A DNA stretch of 63,800 bases, from NCBI GenBank assembly GCA_014802625.1, contig JAAVBX010000003.1:141544-205343 (forward strand), given 5' to 3'. Below are positions 3,791 to 45,312 of the stretch, piece after piece (position 1 is the stretch's first letter; each line of letters opens with the position of its first letter). Under the pieces are notes generated by a model. The model did no database searches. It worked only from the letters and a program-made list of their open reading frames with translations, and was not told where the DNA came from. The stretch is from a bacterium. GTDB lineage: Bacteria > Bacteroidota > Bacteroidia > Bacteroidales > Muribaculaceae. A program made the translations under genes and the position numbers.

Positions 3791-3951
3791 TAATGAATTT
3801 TATTAGAGTTTATATTATTAGTATCATTATTGATGATAAGTAAGTTTACTTAATCTAAGTAAGAAGCACCGTAAGGCAAATGTCCTTTTGATTTTGAGAG
3901 GTCGCTTTATACTATCAAAATTCAAAAATCACTATTGTCTACTGCCTAAAA

Positions 3952-5921: not shown

Positions 5922-5942
5922 AGATTAAATTAGCTTTTTAGT

Positions 5943-9008: not shown

Positions 9009-9048
9009 GGAACTAAAATTTTTGATCGGACCTGAATCTACCTGTTAC

Positions 9049-10584
9049 TCAAATTATTCTTTTAATCAGAGCTCGGCGGATGAATTTACGCTCTTTGGTA
9101 TTCATTCCGATTCCGACCTCCAGAACTATTACGACCAAGATACTACCGACAATGGTGATTACGGGATTGACGGTTTGCGTCAATTGCAAATTGTGGTATC
9201 CGAAATAGAGAAGAGCGCATACGCCAGCCAGCAATCCGGAGGGTAAAAAAACCGATTGTAGTATCCTATAAATGGAGATTTCGGGTATACTTGTCTTAAG
9301 CATCCGCAATCTGACGAACAGGGCGATGATCGCAAGTATGGCAATCGCGACAAAGACCGATTGCGGCGGCAACCCGGAGTGGAGAAGAATATAACCAATA
9401 GGAAGAGTAAGGAGTTGGATACCTCCGACAGCCATCTCATAAATCTTCACCCGACCTGTGGCTCTCACCCCGGCACCAATACAGTAGGTGAAACTTTCAA
9501 TCTGGGAGATTATCAGCACTAATTGAATGAAAACCGGAGCGTAAGAGGGATAGTCTCCGAGCCAGAATTTGAGTATAGGCCCGGTTGCCATCAACACAGG
9601 AAACGACAATATCAGGATGAGGTAAAAGGAAAATTTGCAGCCGTATATAATCAGGTGTTCGGTCTGTTTGAGATCGTTGACTGAAAAGGTTTTGGTTATC
9701 TGAGGATTGATAGCGGTGGTGAAATTCTGGACAAAGCTGTTGATGGCAGTGTTTACCTGAGAGGAAAGGGCATAGGCGGCATTTACCACCGGACCAAAGA
9801 AGAGATTCAGCAAAATGTTGCAACCCTGTTTTTTACCCACCCATGAGAGTGTGCCGATCGTGCTCCACGACATAAATCCGGCCATGGGTCGAAAGAGTTC
9901 TTTATCATATATCGATCGAAGAGACCGACATTCCGGAAAGCGGTGTCTGCAATAGATAAGAGTGAGTAAAACAAGAAGGGCAGCCGTAGCCAGATTAAGA
10001 AGCGCATAAGTCCTCAGTTTATTGGCAAGTATGATGGTCAAAGATAGCGCTACTACCAATTTCATCACGACCTCCAACACGCTCAGGATAGCGAATACTT
10101 CCATTCTTTCACGTGCTATGACAATGGCATTCAGCGGCGTACGGAGGATTAAAAATATAAAAGAGAGCAAAGCACATTGATACACCCAATTGGCAGCTGA
10201 CAGTTGATCCGAAGGAATCTTCATACAATGATTCAGAAACCAGAGACCGAGAGTTTCCGCCAACATCACGACTATCAAAGATAGTAAAATTTGGATGGTG
10301 ATTGCAGTGCGAAATACGCGGGAGGCTTCCTGTATGTCGTCCCTGCCAAGGGAAAAGGATAGGAACCGTACTGTGGACATCGACATCGCCCCGTTAAGGA
10401 AGGAGAGCATCACGATTATGCCGCCGACCACATTGTATATTCCATAATCAACCGCTCCAAGCTCTCTCAACACGATTCGGGAAGTATAGAGTGAAACACC
10501 CATCACCAGAAACATCCTGAAATAAAGCATCAGGGTGTTTCTGGCAATGCGTGAAGTAGAACTATTACTTCTCCGTTGAGGCAA
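9049..10584 (-). CDS. Oligosaccharide flippase (Wzx/MOP superfamily)
   Basis: A 511-residue integral membrane protein with about 14 hydrophobic segments, the usual size and layout of MOP-superfamily lipid-linked oligosaccharide flippases. The N-terminus has a short basic leader, then YFRMFLVMGVSLYTSRIVLRELGAVDYGIYNVVGG, where the L-G-x-x-D/E-Y-G-I-Y-N turn is typical of Bacteroidales Wzx proteins. It would move the undecaprenyl-diphosphate-linked repeat to the outer face of the inner membrane for polymerisation. It is the first large enzyme-type gene after the UpxY regulator, 40 bp upstream of the radical SAM gene. Confidence 0.93.
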   Translation of the reverse strand: MPQRRSNSSTSRIARNTLMLYFRMFLVMGVSLYTSRIVLRELGAVDYGIYNVVGGIIVMLSFLNGAMSMSTVRFLSFSLGRDDIQEASRVFRTAITIQILLSLIVVMLAETLGLWFLNHCMKIPSDQLSAANWVYQCALLSFIFLILRTPLNAIVIARERMEVFAILSVLEVVMKLVVALSLTIILANKLRTYALLNLATAALLVLLTLIYCRHRFPECRSLRSIYDKELFRPMAGFMSWSTIGTLSWVGKKQGCNILLNLFFGPVVNAAYALSSQVNTAINSFVQNFTTAINPQITKTFSVNDLKQTEHLIIYGCKFSFYLILILSFPVLMATGPILKFWLGDYPSYAPVFIQLVLIISQIESFTYCIGAGVRATGRVKIYEMAVGGIQLLTLPIGYILLHSGLPPQSVFVAIAILAIIALFVRLRMLKTSIPEISIYRILQSVFLPSGLLAGVCALLYFGYHNLQLTQTVNPVITIVGSILVVIVLEVGIGMNTKERKFIRRALIKRII

Positions 10585-10620
10585 TTAAGAGTGTGTGCGG
10601 TTTTAAAACTGAAGCCTCTA

Positions 10621-11223
10621 TCAGAAGATGACACCGGCCTTCAGACCGATGAAATTCAGACCACCCACGTTGCGATATACGTTATAGCCGTCGGGTGTGC
10701 AATTCAGTTTTGATTTAAAGAATACACCGATACGGATGAGGGTATGCTGTAAGGGGATATTACCTCCGGCTTCAATAGTCGGGGTGATTAGCAGGCCTGA
10801 TTTTTTAAGATCCTTCACTACCATACCGGCAGAGGAACTCCATGTTTTCGCGCTCAATGTGGTGTAAAAAACGGGAGAAAAACCTACAAGCCCGTAGAAA
10901 GAGCTGTTCCCGAAGGATAGCCGGCTCCACTCCAGCTGAACCGGTATGCCGGCCTCAAACATGTTACGAGTATTGGTGTATTTGTTGATTTTATTGGTGT
11001 AGTCCATCGCCACGGAGAGACCGCAATTGATGAAGAGGTCACGATGGATATTCTTTTTCCACACTCCCTCGATACCGAAATCCTTCGATGTCTGACTATT
11101 GGCGGCAGCATACGCTGAAACCTGTAGAGCATGATCAGGATTCTCGATTCCGGTAGTCTGCGCAAATGCCTTACCTCCGAGACTACCGAGGGCAACAATT
11201 AGTGTTAAGATAACGCGTTTCAT
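10621..11223 (-). CDS. Small secreted outer-membrane beta-barrel-like protein
   Basis: A 200-residue protein with a type I signal peptide (KRVILTLIVALGSLGGKAFAQ). The rest is made of alternating aromatic or hydrophobic strands ending in aromatic residues (RDLFINCGLSVAMDY, SSFYGLVGFSPVFY, HTLIRIGVFFKSKL) and closing with GLKAGVIF, a C-terminal Phe typical of outer-membrane barrels. No family is recognised with certainty. It sits 10 bp after UpxY and before the flippase, so it should be transcribed with the capsule genes. A role in capsule export or anchoring is possible but only inferred from position. Confidence 0.8.
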   Translation of the reverse strand: MKRVILTLIVALGSLGGKAFAQTTGIENPDHALQVSAYAAANSQTSKDFGIEGVWKKNIHRDLFINCGLSVAMDYTNKINKYTNTRNMFEAGIPVQLEWSRLSFGNSSFYGLVGFSPVFYTTLSAKTWSSSAGMVVKDLKKSGLLITPTIEAGGNIPLQHTLIRIGVFFKSKLNCTPDGYNVYRNVGGLNFIGLKAGVIF

Positions 11224-11233
11224 TACAGTTGAT

Positions 11234-11800
11234 TTAAAGTAATTCTACATTAATTTTTTCAATCTTTAGTCGGGCTACTCCACTGATTCCGACGGGGATG
11301 GCCAGCTCCAAGAATTTATCGTCACAGGTTAAAATTTCACCGGTCAAACCCATTAATGGGCCTCTGACAACGTGAACCTTATCATTAACCTTTAAAATCG
11401 AGGGATCAAAGGAGACAGGGTATTCCGATTGTCCCAATATGAATTTGAGACGCTCTATCTGGCAATCTGGAATTTGAGCGATTTTCCCGGTACCGGGGGG
11501 GGTAAAAGCCTTGATTATCAGAGAGTTATGAGTAATATTTGGAATCTCGGATGCGTCCGCCGATACGAAAATTACCATAGGAATGACTACAACTTCCACA
11601 AGTTTCTTTCTATCCGACCATTGACGTAACTGATATTGAACGGGGAGGAAATTCTCTATGCCGATACTGTCGAGATATGCCCTGACTTTCTTCTCACTCC
11701 TGGGTCTGGTATAGAGTGCTATCCAGAATTTCGGGTGCGCTTCGCGGTCGTCAGTCCCATTGACCGACGAGCCGAATCGACATTCTTGTGAGGTTAGCAT
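11234..11800 (-). CDS. UpxY-family capsule transcription antiterminator (NusG-like)
   Basis: A 188-residue NusG paralogue. The NGN domain starts at about residue 24 with FWIALYTRPRSEKKVRAYLDS, then NFLPVQYQLRQWSDRKKLVEV. A KOW-type segment (PLMGLTGEILTC) lies near residue 150. In Bacteroides, the first gene of each capsule operon encodes such a protein, which lets RNA polymerase read through the long untranslated leader of its own operon. Position and orientation fit: it is promoter-proximal to all the minus-strand capsule genes. No UpxZ inhibitor gene is seen next to it, which differs from the classical Bacteroides order. The 24-residue N-terminal extension is of uncertain value. Confidence 0.93.
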   Translation of the reverse strand: MLTSQECRFGSSVNGTDDREAHPKFWIALYTRPRSEKKVRAYLDSIGIENFLPVQYQLRQWSDRKKLVEVVVIPMVIFVSADASEIPNITHNSLIIKAFTPPGTGKIAQIPDCQIERLKFILGQSEYPVSFDPSILKVNDKVHVVRGPLMGLTGEILTCDDKFLELAIPVGISGVARLKIEKINVELL

Positions 11801-32080: not shown

Positions 32081-35050
32081 ATGAAAAGAAAACTCAATCT
32101 AATGCCATTGACACTGTTTCTGGTCATGGTATTGACGGGCGGACTATCAGCCTTCGCGGCGGATATCATCGCATCGGGAACGGTTGTCGACACAGAGTCT
32201 GAACCTCTGATCGGCGTATCGGTCGGAGTCAAAGGGGCCCCCGGCATGGGCACCTCGACAGACATCGACGGAAACTTCCGGATTACAGTGCCCGACGGAT
32301 CAATCCTGGTATTCTCCTATGTCGGTTGCGCCACGAAAGAGATGAAGGCGGCCCCCGGCATGGATGTCGTGCTTCAGGCGGACAGCTCCGACCTTGACGA
32401 AGTTGTAGTCATCGGTTATGGAGCGGTGAAACGTAAAGACCTCACGACGGCCGTCTCGACGGTAGGAGAGGAGGCGTTGGCCAACCGTCCCATCGTTTCA
32501 GCCGCCCAGGCTATCCAGGGTAAGGCTCCGGGTGTGGCAGTGCAGCAGCCCACGGGTGCTCCCGGCGGCGGCCTGACGGTCAGAGTGCGCGGTACGACCT
32601 CATTCAACGGCTCCAACGAGCCTCTATATGTGGTGGACGGTGTGCCGGTCGACAACGTCGACTTCCTCTCGCCGGGCGACATCGAGAACATGCAGATACT
32701 TAAGGATGCCTCCTCGGCAGCCATCTATGGCTCGCGCGGTGCGAACGGCGTCGTGATCATCACCACGAAGCATGGCCGCTCACAGGATGCCAAGATTACC
32801 CTCAATATCCAGGGTGGTTTCACTCATGTGGCAAAAAAGATGGAGGTGCTCAACGCTCAGCAGTATAAGGAACTCATGGATGAGATCGGTCTCGTGAAGT
32901 TGCCTGACGGCCTGACTGACCAGACCGACTGGTTTGACGAGACATACCGCACCGGTAACACACAGACCTATCAGCTGGCCGTATCGCAGAGCACGGACAA
33001 GATACAATATTATATATCGGGCGGCTACCAGCGTGACCGGGGTATCCTGAAGAGCTCATTCTTCCAGCGCTTCAACTTCCGCGCCAATGTGGAGGGCAAG
33101 CTCCGCTCATGGCTCACGGCGAAAGCCAATGTAGTCTACTCCGACTATTCATCTAACGGCGGTGGCGCCATGGGTACGGTCGGTAACCGAGGCGGTGTGA
33201 TTCTCGCCGTAATCAACACCCCGACGTATGCTCCGATCTGGGATCCCGAGAATCCCGACCGCTTCTACAACAACTTCTACGGTCTCAATATGCAGAGTCC
33301 GCTTGAGAACGAGGCGCGTCAGCAGTCGAACCGCAACCGCGAGAACCGACTCATCGCATCAGGCGAACTTCTCTTCAACATCTGGCGCGGATTGACGTTC
33401 ACCACCAAGTTCACTATGGACCGCCGCCACGGCTGGAACACCTCATTCCTTGATCCCGAACTGACGACATGGGGTCGCGAGCAGGGGGGCACCGCTTATG
33501 ACGGGCGCAGCAACAACACTGTTCTGACATGGGATAACATCGTCAACTACGACGTGACCTTCGGCAAGAACACCCTCGGCGTAATGGCCGCCACATCATG
33601 GACCGACTCCAACTACTCCAACAACTGGATCAACGGCCAATACTTCCGCAACGGCTCTATCCAGACGCTTAACGCAGCCAACAAGATCAGCTGGACCGGC
33701 ACAGGCTCCGGCGGCTCGACATGGGGCATCATGTCATACCTCGGCCGTGTCTCCTACAACTATGATTCACGTTATATCGTCAGCGCCAACTTCCGTTATG
33801 ACGGTTCATCGAAACTTCATCCCGACCATCGTTGGAAAGCCTTCCCCTCAGTATCTGCCGCATGGCGTATCTCACAGGAGAATTTCATGCGTGACGTCAA
33901 CTGGATCTACGATCTCAAGCTCCGCGCGGGCTGGGGTATGACCGGTAACCAGGATGGTGTAGGCGACTACGCATATCTCCAGCGCTACAACATCAACCGC
34001 ATCGCATGGTTCGAGGAGGGCAACGCCACTGCAGTGCCGACAATCTCGCAGGCCAACCTCCGCACCCGCGACCTCACTTGGGAGACCACGACGCAGACGG
34101 GTGTCGGCGTAGACTTCGCGGTGCTCAACAACCGTATCGAATTCAGCGCGGACTACTACTACAAAAAGACCTCCGACATGCTGATGTGGGTTTCGCTTCC
34201 CTCCGGTTCGGCAGCGGCAAGCTCCATCCAGCGTAACGAGGGAGAGATGACCAACAAGGGCTTCGAGTTCGGCATCACCTCGCGTAACTTCACAGGCGCC
34301 TTCGAATGGACGACGAACCTCAACATGTCGTTCAACCGCAACAAACTCACCAACCTTGAGCTTCAGAAGGTATATCTTGACGCAGTGACGAGCGAGACCG
34401 TCAACGAAGCGGTGGTGCGCAACGAACCCGGTCGCTCACTCGGCGGATTCTACGGCTACGTGGCCAACGGTGTGGATCCCGAGACAGGTATGATGATCTA
34501 CGAAGATCTCAACGGCGACGGCCGCATCTCCTCATCCGACCGCACATTCATCGGCGACCCGAACCCCGACTTCACATTCGGTATGACCAACACCTTCTCA
34601 TGGAAGGGTTTCAACCTCAGCATCTTCCTCCAGGGTTCATACGGCAACGACATCTTCAACGCCTCCAGAATGGAGACCGAGGGAATGTATGACGGCAAGA
34701 ACCAGACGACAGAAGTGCTCAACCGCTGGCAGATTCCCGGCCAGATCACCGATATGCCCAAGGCCGGCTGGAACATGCGCAACTCCACATACTTCGTAGA
34801 GGACGGCAGCTATCTGCGCATCAAAGATATCTCCCTCTCATACGACATCAGAGGAGAATGGATGAAAAAGATCGGTATCTCACGTATCCAGCCCTATTTC
34901 ACCGCCTCGAACCTCGTGACCTTCACGAAATACTCCGGCATGGACCCGGAGGTGAACCAGTGGGGCAGCAGCGGCGCCGTGCAGGGTATCGACTGGGGCA
35001 CATATCCCCACTGCAAGAGCTATGTATTCGGACTCAACATCGACTTTTAA
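32081..35050 (+). CDS. SusC/RagA-type TonB-dependent outer-membrane transporter
   Basis: A 989-residue glycan importer. After a signal peptide (about residues 1-25, ending SAFAA) comes a CarboxypepD_reg-like domain (IIASGTVVDTESEPLIGVSVGVKG), the TonB-box-type segment DEVVVIGYGAVKRKDLTTAVSTV, a plug domain (GGGLTVRVRGTTSFNGSNEPLYVVDGVPVD...) and a 22-strand barrel ending in GLNIDF, with a C-terminal Phe. With its SusD partner it would form the lidded complex that takes in oligosaccharides using TonB energy. The susD-like gene starts 16 bp downstream. Confidence 0.97.
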   Translation: MKRKLNLMPLTLFLVMVLTGGLSAFAADIIASGTVVDTESEPLIGVSVGVKGAPGMGTSTDIDGNFRITVPDGSILVFSYVGCATKEMKAAPGMDVVLQADSSDLDEVVVIGYGAVKRKDLTTAVSTVGEEALANRPIVSAAQAIQGKAPGVAVQQPTGAPGGGLTVRVRGTTSFNGSNEPLYVVDGVPVDNVDFLSPGDIENMQILKDASSAAIYGSRGANGVVIITTKHGRSQDAKITLNIQGGFTHVAKKMEVLNAQQYKELMDEIGLVKLPDGLTDQTDWFDETYRTGNTQTYQLAVSQSTDKIQYYISGGYQRDRGILKSSFFQRFNFRANVEGKLRSWLTAKANVVYSDYSSNGGGAMGTVGNRGGVILAVINTPTYAPIWDPENPDRFYNNFYGLNMQSPLENEARQQSNRNRENRLIASGELLFNIWRGLTFTTKFTMDRRHGWNTSFLDPELTTWGREQGGTAYDGRSNNTVLTWDNIVNYDVTFGKNTLGVMAATSWTDSNYSNNWINGQYFRNGSIQTLNAANKISWTGTGSGGSTWGIMSYLGRVSYNYDSRYIVSANFRYDGSSKLHPDHRWKAFPSVSAAWRISQENFMRDVNWIYDLKLRAGWGMTGNQDGVGDYAYLQRYNINRIAWFEEGNATAVPTISQANLRTRDLTWETTTQTGVGVDFAVLNNRIEFSADYYYKKTSDMLMWVSLPSGSAAASSIQRNEGEMTNKGFEFGITSRNFTGAFEWTTNLNMSFNRNKLTNLELQKVYLDAVTSETVNEAVVRNEPGRSLGGFYGYVANGVDPETGMMIYEDLNGDGRISSSDRTFIGDPNPDFTFGMTNTFSWKGFNLSIFLQGSYGNDIFNASRMETEGMYDGKNQTTEVLNRWQIPGQITDMPKAGWNMRNSTYFVEDGSYLRIKDISLSYDIRGEWMKKIGISRIQPYFTASNLVTFTKYSGMDPEVNQWGSSGAVQGIDWGTYPHCKSYVFGLNIDF

Positions 35051-35065
35051 ACAACAACAGACATT

Positions 35066-36598
35066 ATGAACTTCAGATATATATTGCCCGCACTACTCGG
35101 CTGCTCCTTAGGCCTCGCGTCATGCAGCCTAGACTACGAGCCGGTCAGCGACTATTCCGATGTGACCGAGGGTGAGATCGACAATGTGGAGGATGAGACC
35201 GTCTATCAGAACCGCGCCGACGCAGAGAGCGCGCTGACAGCACTCTACGAGGACTTCCGCAACAATCAGAACTATCTCCAGCTCGACTTCCTCCTGATCG
35301 GCGACGTACACAGCGACAACGCATATGCCGGCACGACGGGCTCCGAAGTGGTGGACCCCGCGACAAACGATCTCAACGGCACGACACTCTGCGTGAACCG
35401 CGACTGGAACTACTATATGCTTCAGGCTGCAAAATGCACGAAATTCATCATAGGCGTGGCCTCCGTCGGCGACAACAGCCTGAGCCAGGATGAGATCAAC
35501 ACGATGCGCGCGCAGGCCGAGGTGATGAGAGCCTTCATATGGTTCCGCATGGTAAGAATGTGGGGCAACATCCCCATCATCACGACCATCCCGAAGGATA
35601 TCACTTCCGAGAATATCCAGGAATCCTACGAGAGCTACTTCCCGGCTCAGAACACGGAAGCCGAGGCCTATGAATATATACTCAAGGATCTTGAGGATGC
35701 CTATAAGTATGCCCCGGACGGCAACGGCGACAAGACCCGCTTCAGCAAGGATGTGGCCCGCGCGCTTCTCGCCAAGGTCTATGCGGAGCGTCCGGTGCGC
35801 GACTATGCCAAGGTCATCAAATATGTGGATGAGCTGACGGCACGCGGCTATGCGCTTTGCCCCGAATACGGCGACCTCTTCAATATCGACGGAGCTGTAA
35901 AGGATGGCTTCACCGCAACTCCCCTCTACACAAACACGGTAGAGTCGATTCTGGAGGTACACTATCCCGTCGGCTCGGGTAACTGGGCATCCTGGATGTA
36001 TGGCCGCTGTCTCGAGGACTGGGACAACAGCTTCTCCTGGGCTAAATGGATCACTCCCTCCCGCGACCTGCTCTCGGCATTTGACAAAGAGGGTGATACG
36101 AAACGTAAGGAGCAGACCGTTGTATATTACGAATGCGCTTGGAGCAACTACTATCCCTCCGACAATTACGCCTTCATGTATAAAGTCCGCTCAGGCTACA
36201 GCAATATCTTCTTCCTCCGTTATGATGACGTGCTTCTCCTGAAAGCCGAGGCTCTTCTCAACGGCGACAACACAGACCTTGCAGGCGCGGCAGAAATCAT
36301 CGACCGCATCCGCACACGTGCCGGAGTGGCGAAGCTGACGTCGGCCGAGAAGGGAAGCAAGGAGAATCTGATGAAGGCATACATCAACGAGCGTCGTCTC
36401 GAGCTCGCCTGCGAGGGTGAGAGATGGTATGATCTCGTGCGCCTCGGCATACTTGAGGAGACGATGGCGGCTGCCCAGCGCAACGACCCCGGACGTCTGC
36501 CGATCGCGGTTCCCTATACGGTCAATTCCTATCTGCTGCCAATACCGCAGGATGTGCTTGACACGAACCCGAACGTAGTGCAGAACCCCGGATATTGA
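35066..36598 (+). CDS. SusD/RagB-type surface glycan-binding lipoprotein
   Basis: A 510-residue lipoprotein (signal peptide ending GLASC, Cys about 20) with the SusD fold: an N-terminal segment AESALTALYEDFRN, TPR-like helices through the middle and the C-terminal RagB/SusD region ERRLELACEGERWYDLVRLG followed by LLPIPQDVLDTNPNVVQNPGY, the family's ending. It closes over the SusC barrel as a hinged lid and binds the target oligosaccharide. The pair is immediately followed by a GH30, so the cargo should carry that enzyme's linkage. Confidence 0.97.
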   Translation: MNFRYILPALLGCSLGLASCSLDYEPVSDYSDVTEGEIDNVEDETVYQNRADAESALTALYEDFRNNQNYLQLDFLLIGDVHSDNAYAGTTGSEVVDPATNDLNGTTLCVNRDWNYYMLQAAKCTKFIIGVASVGDNSLSQDEINTMRAQAEVMRAFIWFRMVRMWGNIPIITTIPKDITSENIQESYESYFPAQNTEAEAYEYILKDLEDAYKYAPDGNGDKTRFSKDVARALLAKVYAERPVRDYAKVIKYVDELTARGYALCPEYGDLFNIDGAVKDGFTATPLYTNTVESILEVHYPVGSGNWASWMYGRCLEDWDNSFSWAKWITPSRDLLSAFDKEGDTKRKEQTVVYYECAWSNYYPSDNYAFMYKVRSGYSNIFFLRYDDVLLLKAEALLNGDNTDLAGAAEIIDRIRTRAGVAKLTSAEKGSKENLMKAYINERRLELACEGERWYDLVRLGILEETMAAAQRNDPGRLPIAVPYTVNSYLLPIPQDVLDTNPNVVQNPGY

Positions 36599-36624: not shown

Positions 36625-38121
36625 ATGAAACCAACAAAAGTGACAATACTATCCCTGCTCGCCCTCAGCGCCATGATGATGTCATGCGGCGGCGAAGATC
36701 AAGAGACACCCACAACACCCGCACCCGCCGAGCCGGCTCAGCCGGCGGCGGGCGATGTGAGGGTAATTTCCACCACGGCCAACCGTGCGAAAGACCTGAC
36801 TGAATCCACCATCGCATTCAGCACTTCCGACAATATGTCGCCCTCCACGATCAAAATCAATCCCGGGGAGACATATCAGACAATCGACGGATTCGGAGCG
36901 GCAATCACCGGCTCTACGGCTGTCAATCTACTTAAGATGACTCCCGCCGACCGCACCAAATTCCTCAAGGAGACCTTCTCGCCGACCGACGGCTACGGCA
37001 TGAGCTATATCCGCGTGTGCATCGGATGCTCCGACTTCTCGCTGAGCGAATATACATGCTGCGACAAACCCGGCATCGAGAACTTCGGTCTGACAGTGGA
37101 GGAGACCGGCTATGTAATCCCCGTGTTGAAGGAGATACTCGCCATCAATCCCTCAATCAAGATACTCGCTTCCCCCTGGACGGCTCCCAAATGGATGAAG
37201 GTCGACAATCTGACTAACCGTCGTCCTTACGACTCCTGGACCGGGGGCCAGCTCAATCCCGACTATTATCAGGACTATGCCGAGTATTTCGTGAAATGGA
37301 TCAAGGCTTTCGAGAAGGAGGGTATCAAGATTTACGCGATGACTCCGCAGAATGAACCGCTCAACCGTGGCAACTCCGCCTCCATGTTCATGGGTTGGGA
37401 TGAGCAGCGCGACTTCGTGAAGACAGCTCTCGGACCGGCGTTCGAGAAGGCAGGTCTTGACACCAAGATCTATGCGTTTGACCATAACTACAACTACGAC
37501 AACATGGCCGACCAGAAGAGCTATCCCGTCAAGATCTACTCCGATCCCGAAGCGGCCCGCTATCTCGCAGGCGCGGCTTACCACAACTACGGTGGCAATG
37601 TCGAGGAACTCAATTCGGTGCATAAGGCCTGCCCGGATATGGAACTTGTATTCACCGAATCTACAGCGGGCGACTGGAATGACGGCGCAAATCTGCAGGC
37701 ACGTCTGATTGACGACATGGAGCAGATCACCCTCGGCACGGTGAATCGCTGGAGCCGTGGCGCAATCATCTGGAATCTCATGCTCGACTCCCACCGCGGA
37801 CCGAATCGTCCCGGCGGCTGCACGACCGGATTCGGAGCGGTCGACATCGATGATGACTTCAAGACCATCCGCCGCAACTCCTTCTACTACATCATGGCCC
37901 ACATGTCGGCTGTAGTGAAACCCGGCGCGGTCCGCATCGGTTCATCCGGCTACAATCCCGGCGGCCTGACATATTCGGCCTTCCGCAACCCCGACAACAG
38001 CTACGCTCTGGTATTGAGCAACAGAAAGTCGGAAGATGCCAAAGCCACTGTCGATGACGGCAGTCATCATTTCCCGGTCACCGTTCCGGCCAACGGAATC
38101 GTGTCACTGACATGGGAATGA
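36625..38121 (+). CDS. GH30 glycoside hydrolase, lipoprotein (beta-1,6-glucanase-like, GH30_3 type)
   Basis: A 498-residue lipoprotein (LSAMMMSC, then GGEDQE, compatible with surface export). The catalytic TIM barrel with side beta-domain starts at YQTIDGFGAAITGS. The acid/base Glu is in MTPQNEPLNRGNS and the nucleophile Glu in LVFTESTAGDW. The segments YIRVCIGCSDFSLSEYTCCD and WTAPKWMK are like those of Bacteroides GH30 subfamily 3 enzymes acting on beta-1,6-glucan, from memory of the family. Other GH30 activities (beta-glucosidase, beta-1,6-galactanase) remain possible. It is probably the surface endo-enzyme that produces oligosaccharides for the SusCD pair. Confidence 0.92.
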   Translation: MKPTKVTILSLLALSAMMMSCGGEDQETPTTPAPAEPAQPAAGDVRVISTTANRAKDLTESTIAFSTSDNMSPSTIKINPGETYQTIDGFGAAITGSTAVNLLKMTPADRTKFLKETFSPTDGYGMSYIRVCIGCSDFSLSEYTCCDKPGIENFGLTVEETGYVIPVLKEILAINPSIKILASPWTAPKWMKVDNLTNRRPYDSWTGGQLNPDYYQDYAEYFVKWIKAFEKEGIKIYAMTPQNEPLNRGNSASMFMGWDEQRDFVKTALGPAFEKAGLDTKIYAFDHNYNYDNMADQKSYPVKIYSDPEAARYLAGAAYHNYGGNVEELNSVHKACPDMELVFTESTAGDWNDGANLQARLIDDMEQITLGTVNRWSRGAIIWNLMLDSHRGPNRPGGCTTGFGAVDIDDDFKTIRRNSFYYIMAHMSAVVKPGAVRIGSSGYNPGGLTYSAFRNPDNSYALVLSNRKSEDAKATVDDGSHHFPVTVPANGIVSLTWE

Positions 38122-38160: not shown

Positions 38161-40185
38161 ATGAAAACCTATAAAGCATTGACCCTGATGTTTGCTTCGG
38201 CAGCGTTGCTCGTCGGTTGTGACGACGACAGCCTGTTGCCCGGCAACCCCATGATGACCGTCAACGGCGACCTCGGAACGGCCTGCTTCGGCGACAGCCT
38301 TGTTTTCTCGATCAAGGCCGAGGATGCGGAGGTGCCCCTCTCGACAATCCATGCTGAGCTATATTTCGGCGACGAGATGGTCAGCGAGCGCGTGATCCGC
38401 ACAAAGGTGAGCGGCGAGACCTACGAAGGGAAACTCTACGTCCCCTATTATGCCAATATCCCCGACGGGAGCGCCACTCTGCGTCTGACTCTCCAGAATA
38501 TCAATTTCACTACGATTGAGAAGGCCTACAGCGTCAACATCACCCATCCCGATTATCCCTCTCTCACATTCCGCGCCGAGACCGGCGAGGAATACACGAT
38601 GGAGAAGCAGGGACAATATGTCTACGAGATGACTCAGCGTTTCCCCGCCGAACTTCGCGGTGTGATCGTGGCTCCGGCGGTCGGCGCCAACGGCAACGAG
38701 ATTACTTTCGGCTACGAGAACAGCGAAATCAAGCCGTATGCCGAGGGTGTGATACCATTCTCCAATTCCGCCCCGGGGCGTTACACGGTCAGCTTCAACA
38801 CCTTCACGTTCGAGGGTTCGCCCTTCGTGACGCTCTCGCTCAACGATCAGAAACTTGAGGCAATGGGGGAGACTACATCCTTCATCGACATGAATCTCGC
38901 CAAGGGTGACAGAGTCGTACCCTCGGGCTTCCCCGAGTTCGGCGAATGGTGGATCAATCCCGACTATTTCACCAAGAACGAGGATGGCTCGCTGACGTTC
39001 AACGCGTATGACGGCAACTACCGCATCATCGCCGACACGAAGCTTCGCTATTTCCGTGTCTACAAAGTGCTCGGCGACAATCCCGCCACGCTGAACACTG
39101 ACGGCACAGGGGCAGTCTGGGTAATCGGTCAGGGCATCGGTCAGCCCTCGCTCTCCAACGAGGTAGGCTGGACTACGGAGAATGCCATATGTATGGCTCC
39201 GACAGGTGACAAGACCTATCAGCTGACGGTCGTAGGTGGAAAGACGATTGCTGTCGACAATATCAACTTCAAATTCTTCGGCCAGATGGGCTGGGGTGTC
39301 GAGCTTACCGGCGATGACCTCGTCTCGAAATCCAATCTCATCGGGGTGGGCAACGGATCCAACGGCCATGACAACGGCAACCTCTTCCTTGAGGATGGAG
39401 TCGTGCTTCAGGACAACGGTATCTATGTAATCACCCTTGACCTTACCCAGGGTATCAACGATGCTATAATGACTGTCGACTTCAAGGGTGAGCAGCAGTT
39501 TGAGGAGCGTCCGATCTACCTGAACGGTCAGAAGATGTCGACTTCCGATAACAATCTCTACTCCACAGTAATCGAGCTTGCGCAAAATTCAGAACTCAGC
39601 TTCAGAGAATTCTCCGCATTTGACGATCTCTACTTCGATCCCGACTATTTCCATTTCGATGAGGAGGCTTACTCCATCACCTTCCTTCCGGTCAAGGGCC
39701 ACTACAACGTAGTGCTCGACAAGCTGAACGGTACGCTGACGGCCAAGCGCGTCAACGCCGACGGTTCGGAGATGACACTTCAGTCTGACGGATCGGGTGC
39801 TCTCTGGCTGATGGGCTGGGGCGTAGGATCCCCGTCACTCTCAAGCCAGTTCGGTTGGGAACCCGGCAAAGCCTACTGTATGGCCGAGATACGTCCGAAG
39901 GTATATCAGTTCACCGGTAAAGCCGGTCCCGAGCAGGGTTCGGAAATCGGCGACCGTTTCCGCTTCGACTATCTATCGTTCAAGTTCTTCCATCAGGATG
40001 GCTGGGGAGGAGAATATCCCACATCCTCGCTGACCTTCACCAACAACGCGAAAGCGCTCATCAAGGATGCCGGCAACTTCGAACTGGCGGATGGCGTGCA
40101 GCTTGAGGAGGGAGCGACCTACGTAGTGACGATCGATCTCACCGCCGGCACCGACAAAGGCACATTCGATATGGTCAAGAAATAA
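38161..40185 (+). CDS. PUL surface glycan-binding lipoprotein (SusE-position) with duplicated C-terminal module
   Basis: A 674-residue lipoprotein (LLVGC followed by the acidic DDDS, a surface-export-type start). The N-terminal third is built of beta-sandwich-like domains. The rest holds two copies of one module (about residues 260-445 and 480-674). Paired landmarks are WWINPDYF/YFDPDYF, GTGAVWVIGQGIGQPSLSNEVGW/GSGALWLMGWGVGSPSLSSQFGW, FKFFGQMGWG/FKFFHQDGWG and YVITLDLTQG/YVVTIDLTAG. No catalytic motif is seen. It sits in the usual place of SusE/SusF-type binding proteins and should hold the polysaccharide at the surface through two similar sites. A terminator follows it. Confidence 0.85.
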   Translation: MKTYKALTLMFASAALLVGCDDDSLLPGNPMMTVNGDLGTACFGDSLVFSIKAEDAEVPLSTIHAELYFGDEMVSERVIRTKVSGETYEGKLYVPYYANIPDGSATLRLTLQNINFTTIEKAYSVNITHPDYPSLTFRAETGEEYTMEKQGQYVYEMTQRFPAELRGVIVAPAVGANGNEITFGYENSEIKPYAEGVIPFSNSAPGRYTVSFNTFTFEGSPFVTLSLNDQKLEAMGETTSFIDMNLAKGDRVVPSGFPEFGEWWINPDYFTKNEDGSLTFNAYDGNYRIIADTKLRYFRVYKVLGDNPATLNTDGTGAVWVIGQGIGQPSLSNEVGWTTENAICMAPTGDKTYQLTVVGGKTIAVDNINFKFFGQMGWGVELTGDDLVSKSNLIGVGNGSNGHDNGNLFLEDGVVLQDNGIYVITLDLTQGINDAIMTVDFKGEQQFEERPIYLNGQKMSTSDNNLYSTVIELAQNSELSFREFSAFDDLYFDPDYFHFDEEAYSITFLPVKGHYNVVLDKLNGTLTAKRVNADGSEMTLQSDGSGALWLMGWGVGSPSLSSQFGWEPGKAYCMAEIRPKVYQFTGKAGPEQGSEIGDRFRFDYLSFKFFHQDGWGGEYPTSSLTFTNNAKALIKDAGNFELADGVQLEEGATYVVTIDLTAGTDKGTFDMVKK

Positions 40186-40237: not shown

Positions 40238-40283
40238 AGCCGGTGTCTCACTGTCGTCTGGGCAGAGCGGGACACCGGCTTTT
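40238..40283 (+). terminator. Intra-PUL terminator or attenuator
   Basis: AGCCGGTGTC (40238-40247) pairs with GACACCGGCT (40271-40280), a 10-bp GC-rich stem extended by further pairs, followed by TTT. It lies between the binding-protein gene and the lyase-GH88 gene. No consensus promoter is seen in the 15 bp that remain before the next start. Confidence 0.75.
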
Positions 40284-40298
40284 ACACCTTAAAAATAT

Positions 40299-42638
40299 AT
40301 GAAGAGAAAACTGACCGTAAAGGCCGGACTCGCGGCCACCCTCTGTGCGGGGGCCACAGTATGGAACCCGGCACATCTTGATACTGTAAAGAATCAAAGT
40401 AAGCGTCCTTTCTATTCGGCGGCAATCTCCGCGCTGACATCAAGAGGGGACAGCCTGTTGGGACTCTCTCCCGTCTCCGTTCTCGATAAGGATATACTCC
40501 CCCCGGGAGGCGACCCACATGATTATATGAGTCAGGCCCGCTATTTCTGGCCTGATCCCGAGAAGGCTGACGGGCTTCCGTATATCAACCGCGACGGGGA
40601 GACAAATCCCGAAATTTATAGACTTGACAGGGATAGGCTCGGCGAGGCGGCAAGGCGTATCACCGATTTGGCAGTGGCGTGGTATCTGACGGGGGAGGAG
40701 AAATATGCCGACAAGGCCGTAGAGCAGATAAGGGTGTGGTTTCTTGATGAGCCGACCCGCATGAATCCGAATCTGGAATATGCACAGATGATACCGGGCC
40801 ATAACGGAGGGAAGGGTAGATGCTACGGTCTGCTCGACACCTACTCCTTTGTGGAGATGGTCAGCGCGCTTCCCCTTCTTGAATCCTCACAGGCTTTCAC
40901 CAAGGCTGATTCAGAGGGATTGAAGAGATGGTTCGGGAATCTCGTCGACTGGATGCTGACCTCCCCTCAGGGGGAGGAGGAGAGTCGGCAGGCCAACAAC
41001 CATTCAACGGCCTACGACGCGCAGCTCATAGCATTCGCTCTCTATTCCGGACGGGAGGATATAGCCCGCAAGATTGCCGGGGAGGTAGGGGAGAAACGAA
41101 TTTTCACCCAGATCGAACCCGACGGCAGCCAACCTCATGAACTATGGCGCACACTCTCATACGGCTATTCGCAATATAATCTGACTCATCTTCTCGATAT
41201 TCTTGAGATGGCGCGAATGAACAATCTTGATATGGGGAGCGAGGTGTCGCCGGATGGGAGGAGCGTGGAGAAGGCTCTCGATTATCTGGCGCGATATACC
41301 GGGCGCAGCGGAGAGGAATGGCCTTACAAGCAGATTTCCGGAATGGAGAGCAAGCAGCAGGAGACGCTCAAGGATCTCTACAGAATGCGTCTCCTCAATC
41401 CGGAACGCAAAGATTACGCCGACCTCTATCATCGTGAGCGACGGCTCGATTATGCCGATCCGTTCAATCTTGCCTACTATCATCCGAGAGGGAAAGATGA
41501 TGCCTTTGTAGAAGTCATCAGGCAGATGGAATATGCCCTCGCATGTGCGGAGGAGGCGGTGAAAGAGGAGTCGAATGTGGCCGGAGGAAAGGTGACCCCG
41601 CGTACACTTGATGCCGAGGGGAATCTCGTGATGGTGCATCCCCACGATTGGTGTTCCGGATTCTTCGCCGGGTCGTTATGGCAGATTTATGAATACACGG
41701 GTAGCCCCGAATGGAGGGATGCCGCTCTGGAATGGACCTGGAAAATTGAGCCTGCCATATGGCACAAGGGGACGCACGACCTTGGCTTCATGATTTACGA
41801 CAGTTTCGGCAAGGGATATGACTTGACCGGGGATGTGAAACTTCGCGAGGCAACCGAACAGGCGGCTAAAACGCTATCGACCCGTTACTCACCCAAAGTG
41901 GGCGCGATACGTTCATGGGACCACAATGCCGACAAGTGGAAATACCCTGTCATCATCGACAACATGATGAATCTGGAATTACTTTTCAGAGGCACGCAGT
42001 TGACCGGAGATTCCACTTTCAACGATATCGCCCGCCATCATGCCGACAAGACACTGGCGAATCATTTCCGACCGGACGGCACATCCTGGCATGTGGTGGA
42101 TTACGATCCGGAGACGGGAGAGGTGAGAATGAAATGCACGGCGCAGGGATATGCCGATGACTCATGGTGGAGCCGAGGTCAGGCATGGGGACTATATGGC
42201 TACGCCCAATGCTATGGTTACACCGGAGATAAGCGCTATCTCGATATGAGCCGTAAAATCGCTGACTTCATCATAGGGTTGCCCAATATGCCGGCCGATC
42301 AGGTGCCGTATTGGGATATGAAGATGCCGGAGGTGGAGAACGCCACACCATCGGAGGTAGTCGGCGACGTGCCTCGGGATGCCTCGGCAGCCGCCATCAT
42401 CGCCTCGGGTCTCTATCTCCTCAGCGAATATGAAGAGAATGAGGCGAAAGCCGCCGCTTACCGTCGCTATGCCGATGAGACTCTCAGGAATCTGACAGCT
42501 TCCTATCGTATACCGACCGGGGAGAAGAAGGGCTTCCTGCTTGATCACAGCACGGGCCACCATCCCGCCGGATCAGAGATCGATGTGCCGTTGAACTATG
42601 CGGATTATTACTACATAGAGGCGTTGATGCGCCAATAA
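40299..42638 (+). CDS. Bifunctional polysaccharide lyase (alginate-lyase fold, PL38-like) fused to GH88 unsaturated glucuronyl hydrolase
   Basis: A 779-residue exported protein with two enzymes. Residues about 55-400 match the alginate_lyase (alpha/alpha toroid) family as in PL38/PL5, with the Asn-Asn-His active-site motif at 233-235 (QANNHSTAYDAQ). Residues about 430-779 are a complete GH88 domain, with candidate catalytic Asp residues in GTHDLGFMIYDSFG and in YPVIIDNMMNLELL, plus DDSWWSRGQAWGLYGYA and the C-terminal DVPLNYADYYYIEAL. The lyase would cut a uronic-acid chain by beta-elimination; GH88 removes the resulting unsaturated uronic residue. An N-terminal signal segment suggests the periplasm. 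The exact lyase substrate (glucuronan, polymannuronate or other) is not certain. Confidence 0.88.
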   Translation: MKRKLTVKAGLAATLCAGATVWNPAHLDTVKNQSKRPFYSAAISALTSRGDSLLGLSPVSVLDKDILPPGGDPHDYMSQARYFWPDPEKADGLPYINRDGETNPEIYRLDRDRLGEAARRITDLAVAWYLTGEEKYADKAVEQIRVWFLDEPTRMNPNLEYAQMIPGHNGGKGRCYGLLDTYSFVEMVSALPLLESSQAFTKADSEGLKRWFGNLVDWMLTSPQGEEESRQANNHSTAYDAQLIAFALYSGREDIARKIAGEVGEKRIFTQIEPDGSQPHELWRTLSYGYSQYNLTHLLDILEMARMNNLDMGSEVSPDGRSVEKALDYLARYTGRSGEEWPYKQISGMESKQQETLKDLYRMRLLNPERKDYADLYHRERRLDYADPFNLAYYHPRGKDDAFVEVIRQMEYALACAEEAVKEESNVAGGKVTPRTLDAEGNLVMVHPHDWCSGFFAGSLWQIYEYTGSPEWRDAALEWTWKIEPAIWHKGTHDLGFMIYDSFGKGYDLTGDVKLREATEQAAKTLSTRYSPKVGAIRSWDHNADKWKYPVIIDNMMNLELLFRGTQLTGDSTFNDIARHHADKTLANHFRPDGTSWHVVDYDPETGEVRMKCTAQGYADDSWWSRGQAWGLYGYAQCYGYTGDKRYLDMSRKIADFIIGLPNMPADQVPYWDMKMPEVENATPSEVVGDVPRDASAAAIIASGLYLLSEYEENEAKAAAYRRYADETLRNLTASYRIPTGEKKGFLLDHSTGHHPAGSEIDVPLNYADYYYIEALMRQ

Positions 42639-42651
42639 AATCGACCGGATT

Positions 42652-45237
42652 ATGAGAAGTTTACTGATAGGAATGACAATTCTGACTCTCGGACTGAATG
42701 TGGGTGCCCGGGAGACATATACTGTCAATGACGGCTGGACATTCCGTTTCGCGGAGGATACCATCGCGGCGCGACGTGTGGCGGTGCCTCACAGTTGGAA
42801 CTCAGATGCCTATGTCACGCGCGATTATCGTCGCGGAGAGGGGGTATATGAGAGGATGCTGAATATTCCGGAGCGGTTGAGAAACAACCGGATTTACATC
42901 AAGCTCGATGGGGCCGCATCCAAATCAAGAGTTCTGGTAGACGGCAAGGAGACAGGCACACATGTCGGAGCATATTCGCCACATGTGGTCGACCTGACAC
43001 CCTATGTAGAGCCGGGAGGGACCCACCGACTGACCGTGTACGTTGACAATTCCGACCCTGCAGTTCCCCCTTATTCAGCGGATTTTACCTTTATGGGGGG
43101 TCTTTACCGCGATGTCTGGATTGTCGCGGTCGATGATGTGCATCTGTCACCGGAATCCGGACGCGCGGAGGGGGTGAAGGTAAAATCAGGGCTTTCGGCA
43201 TCGGGCGCCGGATTGCTGGCGGTGTCGGGCGACCTGATCAACGCATCGGATAAGAAAGGGAAAATCACAGTCAGTTCCGAAATTCTCGCTCCATCGGGAG
43301 AAGTGATGGCGAGCAGAAGCGCGACGGTGAATCTCAAACCGGAATCTGACGGCACGTTCCGGCTTGATTTCGGAAGCATAGAAGGGGTGGAGCCATGGTC
43401 GCCCGAAAGTCCGGTGTTGTATGAACTTGTGACAGAGGTGAGAGATGGCGGGAAAGTTCTGGACAGCACTCGCACGAGTGTCGGCTTTCGCTCCTTCGGA
43501 TTTGACGACGAGGGGCGTTTCCTTCTCAACGGCTCCCCCTATAAACTGCGGGGAATGTGTCGTCATCAGGATCAGCGTCCGATGGGGATAGCCCTCACCG
43601 ACGAGCAGCATCGTCGCGACATGAAACTGATAAAGGATATGGGAGCCAACTTTATCAGAATCAGCCATTATCCGCAGGATGACGCCGTGCTGGAGATGTG
43701 CGACCGTCTGGGTCTGATCGCCTGGGAGGAGATTCCGGTTATCGACTATGTGCCCGATACTCCCGGCTTCGATGAAAATGCCGAGACGATGGTGCGCGAG
43801 ATGATCAGGAGTCATTACAATCATCCCTCTGTGGCCATGTGGGGGTATATGAATGAAATCTTGCTACGCACGCCTGCGGATGAACGTGAGGCGACGAGGG
43901 AGCGCACCAAGCTATTGGCCGACAGGCTTGAAGAGGTGGTAAAAGAGGAGGATGCGTCGCGCATGAGCGCGATGGCGTTCCACGGGAGCGATGTCTACCA
44001 TGAGGCCGGAATGGGGGAGATTACCGATGTCAAAGGCTGGAACCTGTATCAGGGCTGGTATGGCGGGGATATGACGGAGTTTGAGAAGTTCCTCTCCCGT
44101 CAGCATGCCGAGCACCCTTCACACCGACTGATTGTCAGCGAATATGGCGCCGGGTCGGATCTCAGGCTCCATTCACTTAAGCCCGAGCCATTCGACTTCA
44201 GCATGGAGTATCAGCAGCAGTATCTTGAGCACTACCTGCCGGTGATAGAGGATTCAGCCTTCGTGGCCGGAGCGTCGCATTGGAATTTCATAGATTTCTC
44301 CTCGGCCAACCGTGCGGAATCGATGCCGCATATTAATAACAAAGGCCTTGTCACGAATGACCGCCGAAAGAAGGATGTCTACCACTATTATCAGGCAGCA
44401 TGGACACCGAGTGATAGGAAGAGCGTCGCTCACATCGCCTCGCGGGACTGGGCTGAGCGAACGGAAATCGTGGTCGCCGGCGATACTGTGATGCGTCCCG
44501 TGAAGATTTATACGAATCTCCCGGTCGTAACGCTTACGGTCAACGGCACCGCTTTGCCTGAAACGGCAGTAGCGAATTACACCGCTGTTTTCGATGTGCC
44601 GCTGAAAAAGGGGAGGAATGTTCTTGAGCTTCATTCATCCTCAGTGGCATCTGATGATACGCTCGATGCCATGACTATCGACGTTAATCTCATCCCTGTG
44701 CGTGGCGGGAAGATAGTGTTGGGAGAGGATGAGCTGGCGATCAATGTCGGATCAAACTGTTATTTCCGAAGCGAGGATAGCGGACTGACATGGCTGCCCG
44801 ATATGGAGTATGGGCCCGGTGGCGCTTACGGATATGTGGGAGGCAGAAGAAACGTCAGTCAGGATGAGATCGGACTCACGAATGACGGCCCGTTGTATCA
44901 GCGGAGTCTATCGGAATTAGAGGAATATCGGATTGATGTGGAGGATGGCGAATATGAATTGGAATTGGGATTTGCCGATCTGTCGGCTCCCTCGGCACTC
45001 TCGGCGTATATGCTCGGACACAATGCGGGCAAAGCCACATCCGCCTCAAGGATGGATATCGCGGTCAACGGTGTGACGGTCGAGGATGATTTCAGTCCGG
45101 CTCTGGAGAGCGGGGTTAAGAATATGGTGAAACGCCGCTATCTGACGAAAGCCGCCGACGGGGAGGGAATCACCGTCAGCTTCACCCCGGACGGGGGACT
45201 GACCCTGCTCAGCACGATAAAGATCCGACGGTTGTAG
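42652..45237 (+). CDS. GH2 glycoside hydrolase (beta-galactosidase/beta-glucuronidase family) with malectin-like C-terminus
   Basis: An 861-residue exported enzyme (signal peptide RSLLIGMTILTLGLNVGA). It has the GH2 sugar-binding domain (VAVPHSWNSDAYV...GVYERML), an immunoglobulin-like domain and the TIM barrel. Barrel motifs are GMCRHQDQRPMGIAL, the acid/base Glu in WGYMNEILL and the nucleophile Glu in LIVSEYGAGSD. The last about 170 residues (LAINVGSNCYFRSEDSGLTWLPD...) look like a malectin/CBM57-type carbohydrate-binding domain. It would remove terminal beta-linked sugars from imported oligosaccharides. Beta-galactosidase and beta-glucuronidase cannot be separated with confidence; the uronic-acid enzymes next to it favour the latter slightly. 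It starts 13 bp after the lyase-GH88 gene. Confidence 0.92.
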   Translation: MRSLLIGMTILTLGLNVGARETYTVNDGWTFRFAEDTIAARRVAVPHSWNSDAYVTRDYRRGEGVYERMLNIPERLRNNRIYIKLDGAASKSRVLVDGKETGTHVGAYSPHVVDLTPYVEPGGTHRLTVYVDNSDPAVPPYSADFTFMGGLYRDVWIVAVDDVHLSPESGRAEGVKVKSGLSASGAGLLAVSGDLINASDKKGKITVSSEILAPSGEVMASRSATVNLKPESDGTFRLDFGSIEGVEPWSPESPVLYELVTEVRDGGKVLDSTRTSVGFRSFGFDDEGRFLLNGSPYKLRGMCRHQDQRPMGIALTDEQHRRDMKLIKDMGANFIRISHYPQDDAVLEMCDRLGLIAWEEIPVIDYVPDTPGFDENAETMVREMIRSHYNHPSVAMWGYMNEILLRTPADEREATRERTKLLADRLEEVVKEEDASRMSAMAFHGSDVYHEAGMGEITDVKGWNLYQGWYGGDMTEFEKFLSRQHAEHPSHRLIVSEYGAGSDLRLHSLKPEPFDFSMEYQQQYLEHYLPVIEDSAFVAGASHWNFIDFSSANRAESMPHINNKGLVTNDRRKKDVYHYYQAAWTPSDRKSVAHIASRDWAERTEIVVAGDTVMRPVKIYTNLPVVTLTVNGTALPETAVANYTAVFDVPLKKGRNVLELHSSSVASDDTLDAMTIDVNLIPVRGGKIVLGEDELAINVGSNCYFRSEDSGLTWLPDMEYGPGGAYGYVGGRRNVSQDEIGLTNDGPLYQRSLSELEEYRIDVEDGEYELELGFADLSAPSALSAYMLGHNAGKATSASRMDIAVNGVTVEDDFSPALESGVKNMVKRRYLTKAADGEGITVSFTPDGGLTLLSTIKIRRL

Positions 45238-45276: not shown

Positions 45277-45312
45277 GATTCGGAGATGATTCCCGGGAAT
45301 CATCTCCGAATC
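45277..45312. terminator. 36-bp perfect palindrome between convergent genes
   Basis: GATTCGGAGATGATTCCC (45277-45294) is followed directly by its exact reverse complement (45295-45312). It lies between the ends of the GH2 gene and the convergent outer-membrane protein gene. A bidirectional terminator is the simplest reading, although T-runs are poor on both sides. Confidence 0.7.

What the first reader, a model, noticed from the sequence alone, without database searches (positions are those of the whole stretch)
40299..42638. Polysaccharide lyase fused to the hydrolase that consumes its product
An alginate-lyase-fold (PL38-like) domain with an intact N-N-H site is joined to a complete GH88 domain with both candidate catalytic Asp residues. 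Lyases of this kind leave an unsaturated uronic acid at the new end, and GH88 enzymes remove exactly that residue. The two steps are usually on separate proteins, so the fusion implies channelling of a uronic-acid polymer.
Basis: partly seen in the sequence, partly recalled or inferred. Interest (0 to 1): 0.7.

Follow-up and report, generated by a model that had tools for sequence, protein, structure and literature searches.

The report
Two-step uronic-acid-removing fusion enzyme
A bacterium of the Bacteroides group makes one protein in which a sugar-chain-cutting lyase is joined directly to the enzyme that removes the odd sugar the cut leaves behind, and relatives have joined the same partners in other orders, which suggests that keeping these steps together matters.

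Summary
ORF 40299-42638 is a PL38-type lyase (residues about 20-396) joined end to end, without a free linker, to a GH88 unsaturated-glucuronyl hydrolase (395-779). All but one of the compared catalytic-site residues are kept. 25 other gene calls share the architecture; they form one clade in Bacteroidales, next to the B. ovatus structure 3nfv.

First, the locus is a seven-gene PUL with a BT3312-type endo-1,6-beta-glucanase (GH30); the fusion looks periplasmic and is followed 13 bases later by a GH2 with the beta-glucuronidase N-x-K motif. I therefore favour removal of 4-substituted glucuronic acid from imported glucan oligosaccharides over attack on a uronic-acid polymer. Second, the same three partners (PL38, GH88, GH2) are rearranged elsewhere, mostly in Bacteroidota: adjacent genes, reversed GH88-PL38, GH88-GH2 and GH2-PL38. 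The PL38 tree rejects a single origin for these fusions; the GH88 tree is weaker. This supports consecutive action on one substrate. It does not show channelling, which I could not test. My literature searches showed no such fusion. Substrate and activity are unproven.

The parts
40299..42638 (+). PL38-GH88 fusion gene (779 aa)
40356..41486 (+). PL38 lyase domain, residues 20-396
40995..41003 (+). N233-N234-H235, equivalent to BoPL38 N241-N242-H243
   Evidence: role of H243 from PMC13169297 (passages)
41148..41168 (+). R284 to Y290, equivalent to BoPL38 R292 and Y298; G289 replaces H297
   Evidence: role of Y298 from PMC13169297 (passages)
41481..42635 (+). GH88 domain, residues 395-779
41778..41780 (+). 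D494, equivalent to S. agalactiae UGL D115
   Evidence: read by eye from alignment; position of motif; mutant titles
41958..41960 (+). D554, equivalent to S. agalactiae UGL D175
   Evidence: read by eye from alignment; position of motif; mutant titles
42652..45237 (+). GH2 beta-glucuronidase-like enzyme (861 aa), 13 bases after the fusion, motif N-N-K at 562-564
   Evidence: Pfam GH2, best PDB 6d50/5uj6 863 bits, N-x-K motif, gap
36625..38121 (+). BT3312-type endo-1,6-beta-glucanase (GH30), lipoprotein-type N-terminus by eye
   Evidence: NF053856 806.5 bits over cut-off 700; 5ngk (BT3312) 5.8e-213; N-terminus
38161..40185 (+). likely surface glycan-binding lipoprotein (DUF5016/DUF5125/DUF5121)
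   Evidence: N-terminus; role inferred from position
35066..36598 (+). SusD-like lipoprotein
32081..35050 (+). SusC-like TonB-dependent transporter
   Evidence: TIGR04056 930 bits
29881..31815 (+). SusR-family regulator
   Evidence: NF058541 494 bits over cut-off 480
45277..45312 (.). perfect 16-pair hairpin after the GH2 gene, likely end of the operon
   Evidence: terminator-like sites are no more numerous than in shuffles, 4 against a mean of 3.8; this one has 16 pairs

Best explanation
The gene encodes a periplasmic bifunctional enzyme. The PL38 domain cuts, by beta-elimination, the bond to O4 of a glucuronic acid residue and leaves a 4,5-unsaturated glucuronyl end; the GH88 domain on the same chain then hydrolyses that end. 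Its substrate is most likely oligosaccharides from a glucuronic-acid-bearing 1,6-beta-glucan, cut at the cell surface by the GH30 lipoprotein and imported by SusC/SusD; the adjacent GH2 removes glucuronic acid whose O4 is free. Shown: domains, intact catalytic residues, gene order, recurrence of the fusion, repeated fusion of the same partners. Inferred: activities, location, substrate, order of steps. The two-step activity alone I put near 0.9; with this substrate class, near 0.5.
For: Domains and residues. In 27 of 27 rows of the fusion clade Q163, N233, N234, H235, R284 and Y290 are kept, and Y82 and D99 in 26 of 27, the other being a gap. GH2 is nearest to 6d50/5uj6 and carries the GUS N-x-K motif, as do 52 of 54 GH2s from these loci, window and L031 included, after dropping short and low-scoring GH2 pieces (motif meaning recalled). 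GH30 scores over the equivalog cut-off for BT3312-type endo-1,6-beta-glucanase. 15 of 25 fusion loci (L031 left out as the same species; 10 have none, 6 of these near a contig end) have a motif-bearing GH2 within 6 kb on the same strand. Mannonate dehydratase and/or D-mannonate oxidoreductase, D-glucuronate catabolic genes, sit beside the module in L035, L036, B. oleiciplenus L037, L044 and Cesiribacter L063. The PL38 tree requires several origins for the fusions.
Against: No assay. PL38 members are reported on alginate, glucuronan, hyaluronan and chondroitin (PMC13027841 passages), so the family does not fix the uronate. The window's genome (69% complete) has no UxaC, UxuA or KduI match; UxuA and KduI are both absent in the same 5 of 14 carriers, so products may not be used there. 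This PUL has no beta-glucosidase gene, unlike the B. thetaiotaomicron 1,6-beta-glucan PUL. One cysteine of the BT3312 -2 subsite pair is Gly in the window GH30, so its specificity may be shifted. Only 4 loci (window, L031, L033, L073) show a complete BT3312-type gene with the fusion; L037 has the end of one at the edge of the fetched stretch. GH3 and GH5 enzymes in other fusion loci have no fixed specificity.
Confidence: 0.5

Rival explanations
1. It degrades a true uronic-acid polymer (glucuronan, or alginate-like poly-uronate) step by step, the lyase shortening the chain and GH88 taking each unsaturated end.
For: Four of the characterised PL38s are beta-1,4-glucuronan or alginate lyases (PMC13027841 passages); nearest structure 3nfv/3nnb is titled alginate lyase; GH88 and GUS could finish glucuronan oligomers.
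Against: The depolymerase of the PUL is a BT3312-type endo-1,6-beta-glucanase; no other lyase among the PUL proteins scanned; uptake of an intact polymer is unlikely (inference); the GH2 N-x-K motif and linked uronate genes point to glucuronate, not alginate.
Confidence: 0.22
2. The module targets a bacterial or plant exopolysaccharide or glycosaminoglycan with 4-linked glucuronic acid (xanthan-, gellan-, acetan- or hyaluronan-like); GH30 has drifted to another beta-1,6 or related linkage.
For: A PL38 acts on hyaluronan and chondroitin (PMC13027841) and an Akkermansia PL38 was assayed on GAGs with a GH105 (PMC11790493 figure legend); the nearest GH88 structure, 3wiw, is titled heparin-specific; no BT3312-type gene was found within 6 kb of the unfused modules; one active-site Cys is changed in the window GH30.
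Against: Window GH30 stays above the BT3312 equivalog cut-off and, by my reading of the alignment (paper numbering minus 2), keeps the other active-site residues named in PMC5481569; no sulfatase among the PUL proteins scanned.
Confidence: 0.2
3. The lyase half is catalytically dead or acts only as a binding module; the protein is just a GH88.
For: H297 of BoPL38 is Gly here. One stand-alone GH88 (L048) nests in the fusion clade.
Against: The other mapped residues are kept throughout the clade, and H297 is also Gly in 3nfv and in 26 of 38 rows outside the clade, 3nfv counted; the lyase domain is found in 25 other gene calls.
Confidence: 0.05

Closest known systems
BoPL38 (PL38, B. ovatus CP926; 8bdq, 9fht-9fi6) and BACOVA_01668 (3nfv/3nnb)
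   Different: Single-enzyme chains; 3nfv lies beside the fusion clade in the PL38 tree, BoPL38 (as 9fi1) is on a long distant branch; BoPL38 lies in an alginate PUL (PMC11381880 passage)
GH88 unsaturated glucuronyl hydrolases (3wiw; 1vd5 from Bacillus; S. agalactiae UGL)
   Same: Full-length domain, both catalytic Asp
   Different: Stand-alone in those structures; here joined to a lyase; 41% identity to 3wiw
1,6-beta-glucan PUL of B. thetaiotaomicron with BT3312 (PMC5481569: abstract, part of section 9, section 12)
   Same: SusC/SusD, BT3312-type enzyme, a lipoprotein in the likely place of the surface binding protein
   Different: That PUL has a periplasmic beta-glucosidase; here none, but PL38-GH88 and a GUS-type GH2 instead. 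L073 (G131) has a GH3 and the fusion together
Rha-GlcA lyases PL27/PL42 acting on gum arabic (PMC8377490, PMC13169297 passages)
   Same: Logic: a lyase removes a 4-O cap from glucuronic acid and leaves it unsaturated
   Different: Different folds and families; single enzymes
P36 GH78-sulfatase, ulvan PUL of Formosa agariphila (PMC8511951 passages)
   Same: Fusion of enzymes acting in consecutive steps of a uronate-polymer pathway
   Different: Different families and chemistry

Membership tests
PL38 | Sequence and fold relation to characterised PL38 enzymes | tested here: met
PL38 | Catalytic residues of BoPL38 (Y298, H243; also N242, Q173, D108, R292) | tested here: met
   roles of Y298 and H243 from PMC13169297; others are mutated positions in PDB titles except R292, my own reading. 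H297 differs
PL38 | Beta-elimination on a 4-linked uronate | not testable with these tools
   needs assay
GH88 | Fold and sequence relation to UGLs | tested here: met
GH88 | Two catalytic Asp | tested here: met
   D494, D554, by eye
GH88 | Hydrolysis of unsaturated glucuronyl ends | not testable with these tools
   needs assay
GH2 beta-glucuronidase | N-x-K motif (recalled) | tested here: met
   NNK at 562-564
GH2 beta-glucuronidase LacZ4 equivalog NF050095 | Curated score cut-off | tested here: not met
   428 bits against cut-off 950, though the best hit in that library. So 'GUS-like', not a member of that equivalog
BT3312-type endo-1,6-beta-glucanase | Equivalog NF053856 cut-off | tested here: met
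   806.5 over 700
BT3312-type endo-1,6-beta-glucanase | C393-C396 pair at subsite -2 (a feature of BT3312; whether it defines the family is not known) | tested here: not met
   second Cys is Gly in window, L031, L033; Cys in L073 and in the partial L037 gene

The most novel reading that the evidence does not exclude
PL38, GH88 and GUS-type GH2 form a mobile three-enzyme module for an undescribed class of glucuronylated glucans, and co-residence of the steps on one chain has arisen at least four times, six at face value, in different orders (PL38-GH88 once, GH88-PL38 once or twice, GH2-PL38 once or twice, GH88-GH2 once). What is selected would be proximity in the periplasm rather than a fixed tunnel, for instance to stop the unsaturated intermediate from leaking out or blocking the glucanase.
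Probability: 0.35. Interest if true: 0.68.

Novelty: new variant of a known kind. Interest (0 to 1): 0.5.

Why it matters
The families are known, but my searches found no account of the fusion. Repeated joining of the same partners in different orders gives evidence, free of any assay, that these enzymes act consecutively on one glycan, and points to a glucuronic-acid-bearing 1,6-beta-glucan as a nutrient. It also offers natural constructs (fused in two orders, and unfused) to test directly whether enzyme proximity helps in the periplasm.

Tried and rejected
Alginate as substrate: considered because of the Pfam name and 3nfv title; disfavoured by the GUS-type GH2s and linked glucuronate genes, not excluded.

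'The products are not eaten in BT3312-type loci' was tested and dropped as a rule: UxuA is absent in the window's genome, L031's and G131 but present in L033's genome.

Single origin of all PL38/GH88 fusions: rejected on the PL38 tree (p-AU 1.7e-5). The GH88 tree is weaker: the three reversed fusions as one clade are not rejected there (p 0.374; nine divergent or GH2-fused rows were left out of that tree). GH2-PL38 as one clade is rejected only at p 0.012, and starred branches do not force two origins. These groups were named by architecture but tested after the trees were seen.

GH3 and GH5 in other fusion loci as proof of a glucan: dropped. The GH5's best PDB match is named putative beta-xylosidase, then CelC; the GH3 reaches no NCBIfam cut-off and its best PDB match is named only by family.

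Channelling geometry: no coordinates on hand.

Literature: PL38 with GH88 gave 2 papers; passages of one were read and describe no such fusion, the other was seen in the listing only. One search (GH88 with fusion or multimodular terms) gave 9 papers, of which I read passages of two. Glucuronoglucan searches gave little: one review passage names glucuronoglucan. The BoPL38 2023 paper, the B. uniformis GUS paper and the Trichoderma glucuronan-lyase paper were not held. Recalled, from no call: the names BuGUS-2, BuGUS-3 and P. merdae GUS, the N-x-K motif, and my belief that the window's family is Muribaculaceae.

Full report

Catalytic sites. On an alignment with BoPL38 and 3nfv, window Y82, D99, Q163, N233, N234, H235, R284 and Y290 match BoPL38 Y91, D108, Q173, N241, N242, H243, R292 and Y298; BoPL38 H297 is G289 here, and Gly also in 3nfv. 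Y298 and H243 are the proton-abstracting residues of BoPL38 (PMC13169297, passages). In the fusion clade Q163, N233, N234, H235, R284 and Y290 are kept in 27 of 27 rows, Y82 and D99 in 26 of 27, the other a gap. In GH88, D494 and D554 align with S. agalactiae D115 and D175, read by eye and the PDB mutant titles. A regular-expression check over 67 GH88 proteins found both motifs in 63; L072, which is a fusion, and L139, L148 and L152 lack the first.

The locus. Gene order is SusR-family regulator, SusC, SusD, GH30, DUF5016/5125/5121 lipoprotein, PL38-GH88, GH2. Gaps from SusC to GH2 are 15, 26, 39, 113 and 13 bases. The GH30 scores 806.5 bits against a 700-bit cut-off for BT3312-type endo-1,6-beta-glucanase and matches 5ngk at 5.8e-213. 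[quoted passage not shown]). One difference: the second cysteine of its subsite -2 pair is Gly in window, L031 and L033, but Cys in L073 and in the partial gene at the edge of L037. By eye, N-termini of GH30, SusD and the DUF5016 protein look like lipoproteins, and the fusion and GH2 like ordinary secreted (periplasmic) proteins; L073's fusion has a lipobox-like Cys instead (no signal predictor was run).

The neighbour GH2. Its best PDB match is 6d50/5uj6 (863 bits; recalled as B. uniformis GUS). It has the N-x-K motif of beta-glucuronidases (recalled), as have 52 of 54 GH2 proteins from these loci, window and L031 included; L065 (broken frame) and L074 (distant) are the exceptions, and GH2 pieces under 380 aa or scoring 100 bits or less were dropped before the count. 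It falls below the NF050095 equivalog cut-off (428 against 950). A second GH2 type in other loci (L045) matches 6d7j, named beta-glucuronidase, at 1213 bits. The window's is the only GH2 found in its genome.

Distribution. Near-full-length PL38-GH88 matches were found in 11 of 198 genomes of the family (one, G056, has an internal stop), 5 of 393 of the order and 1 of 395 of the phylum, the window's own genome counted each time; the last two calls scored at most two candidates per genome, so these are lower bounds. The scan of GTDB contigs gave 33 loci with a relative of either half, among them fusions in Bacteroides oleiciplenus and in Bacteroides and Prevotellaceae MAGs. The 15 other genomes of the window's genus listed had no match, though a further genus member carries the fusion: L033's genome has the same UxuA place as G999. 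The distribution is patchy.

Rearrangement of the same partners. My gene calls gave 26 PL38-GH88 (window and L031 included), 3 GH88-PL38, 4 GH88-GH2, 3 GH2-PL38, 31 single PL38 and 34 single GH88. The single sets include cut or broken fusions (L039, L044, L046, L049), and L146, L147, L148, L151 and L152 are GH88 fusions to other domains by Pfam or phmmer position. In 18 loci PL38 and GH88 are separate genes in one stretch: in 13 they lie within 100 bases of each other, and in 16 a GH2 lies within 6 kb. These loci were retrieved by similarity to PL38 or GH88, so the counts are not an unbiased sample; other single GH88 loci (L048, L050, L057, L058, L059, L062) have no PL38 within 6 kb.

Trees. 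In the PL38 tree (65 rows) all PL38-GH88 rows form one clade at 99 (L046 inside it is a broken copy of the fusion), next to 3nfv and Persicobacter; the reversed fusions fall in two places and GH2-PL38 in two. AU tests reject one clade for the three reversed fusions (p 8e-6), for all PL38/GH88 fusions in either order (p 1.7e-5) and for GH2-PL38 (p 0.012). On the GH88 side the PL38-GH88 clade (with L048) is not rejected (p 0.80), nor is a single clade of reversed fusions (p 0.37). GH88-GH2 is one clade. At face value this is six origins: one PL38-GH88, two GH88-PL38, two GH2-PL38, one GH88-GH2; at the least four, one per architecture.

Which uronate. Mannonate dehydratase (uxuA) and/or D-mannonate oxidoreductase, part of D-glucuronate catabolism, lie beside the fusion in L035, L036, L037 and L044 (cut by a contig end) and beside the unfused module in L063, with further hits in L138 and L154 (NCBIfam over cut-off for L037, and for L035, L044, L063 and L154). 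With the GUS-type GH2s this points to D-glucuronate. Against a simple nutritional story, the window's genome has no UxaC, UxuA or KduI match (genome 69% complete), and UxuA and KduI are present in the same 9 of 14 carriers and absent in the same 5. Among 14 genomes behind L031-L044 UxuA is present in 8. For the BT3312-type loci it is absent in the window, L031 and G131 and present in L033's genome.

How it most likely works. GH30 cuts a 1,6-beta-glucan at the surface; SusC/SusD import fragments; in the periplasm PL38 breaks the bond to O4 of a glucuronic acid, GH88 takes off the unsaturated residue, and GH2 takes glucuronic acid with a free O4. This parallels the logic of Rha-GlcA lyases on gum arabic (PMC8377490, passages). 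Glucuronoglucan is named in a Ganoderma review (PMC10094145, one passage), which is weak support. Shown here: anatomy, residues, context, recurrence. Inferred: activity, location, substrate.

Verdict. A real and well-conserved fusion of two known families, with an unusual record of repeated joining of the same partners in different orders. New variant of a known kind; channelling remains an untested idea.

Noticed in passing
L144, L145, L150: GH88-PL38 fusions with the domain order reversed, in two places of the PL38 tree.
   Followed up: yes
L135, L136, L137, L149; L056, L060, L061: GH88-GH2 fusions in Bacteroidota genomes; GH2-PL38 fusions in two Sphingobacterium and one Phycisphaerae MAG.
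   Followed up: partly
L147, L148, L151, L152, L146: GH88 joined to other domains: beta-helix lyase-like plus DUF4955, weak Alginate_lyase matches (two), DUF2264, alpha-L-fucosidase.
   Followed up: no
L069/L076, L066/L077, L068/L078: Three genomes of the window's family (G034, G076, G186) hold both a fused PL38-GH88 locus and a second, unfused PL38/GH2/GH88 locus; L076 also has two further GH88s and a chondroitinase-B-type protein.
   Followed up: partly
window 40239-40279: Inverted repeat (GCCGGTGTC ... GACACCGGC) followed by TTTT in the 113-base gap before the fusion gene; may be an internal terminator or attenuator. Read by eye; not listed by the scan, whose loop limit is 8.
   Followed up: no
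window 38161-40185: The DUF5016/DUF5125/DUF5121 lipoprotein has DUF5125 and DUF5121 twice (two stretches each), as if duplicated.
   Followed up: no
L048 9908-11194: A stand-alone GH88 that nests inside the fusion clade in the GH88 tree, a possible loss of the lyase half.
   Followed up: no
window 1-11800: By eye, a surface-polysaccharide gene cluster on the minus strand (nucleotide-sugar dehydrogenase-like and glycosyltransferase-like N-termini).
   Followed up: no
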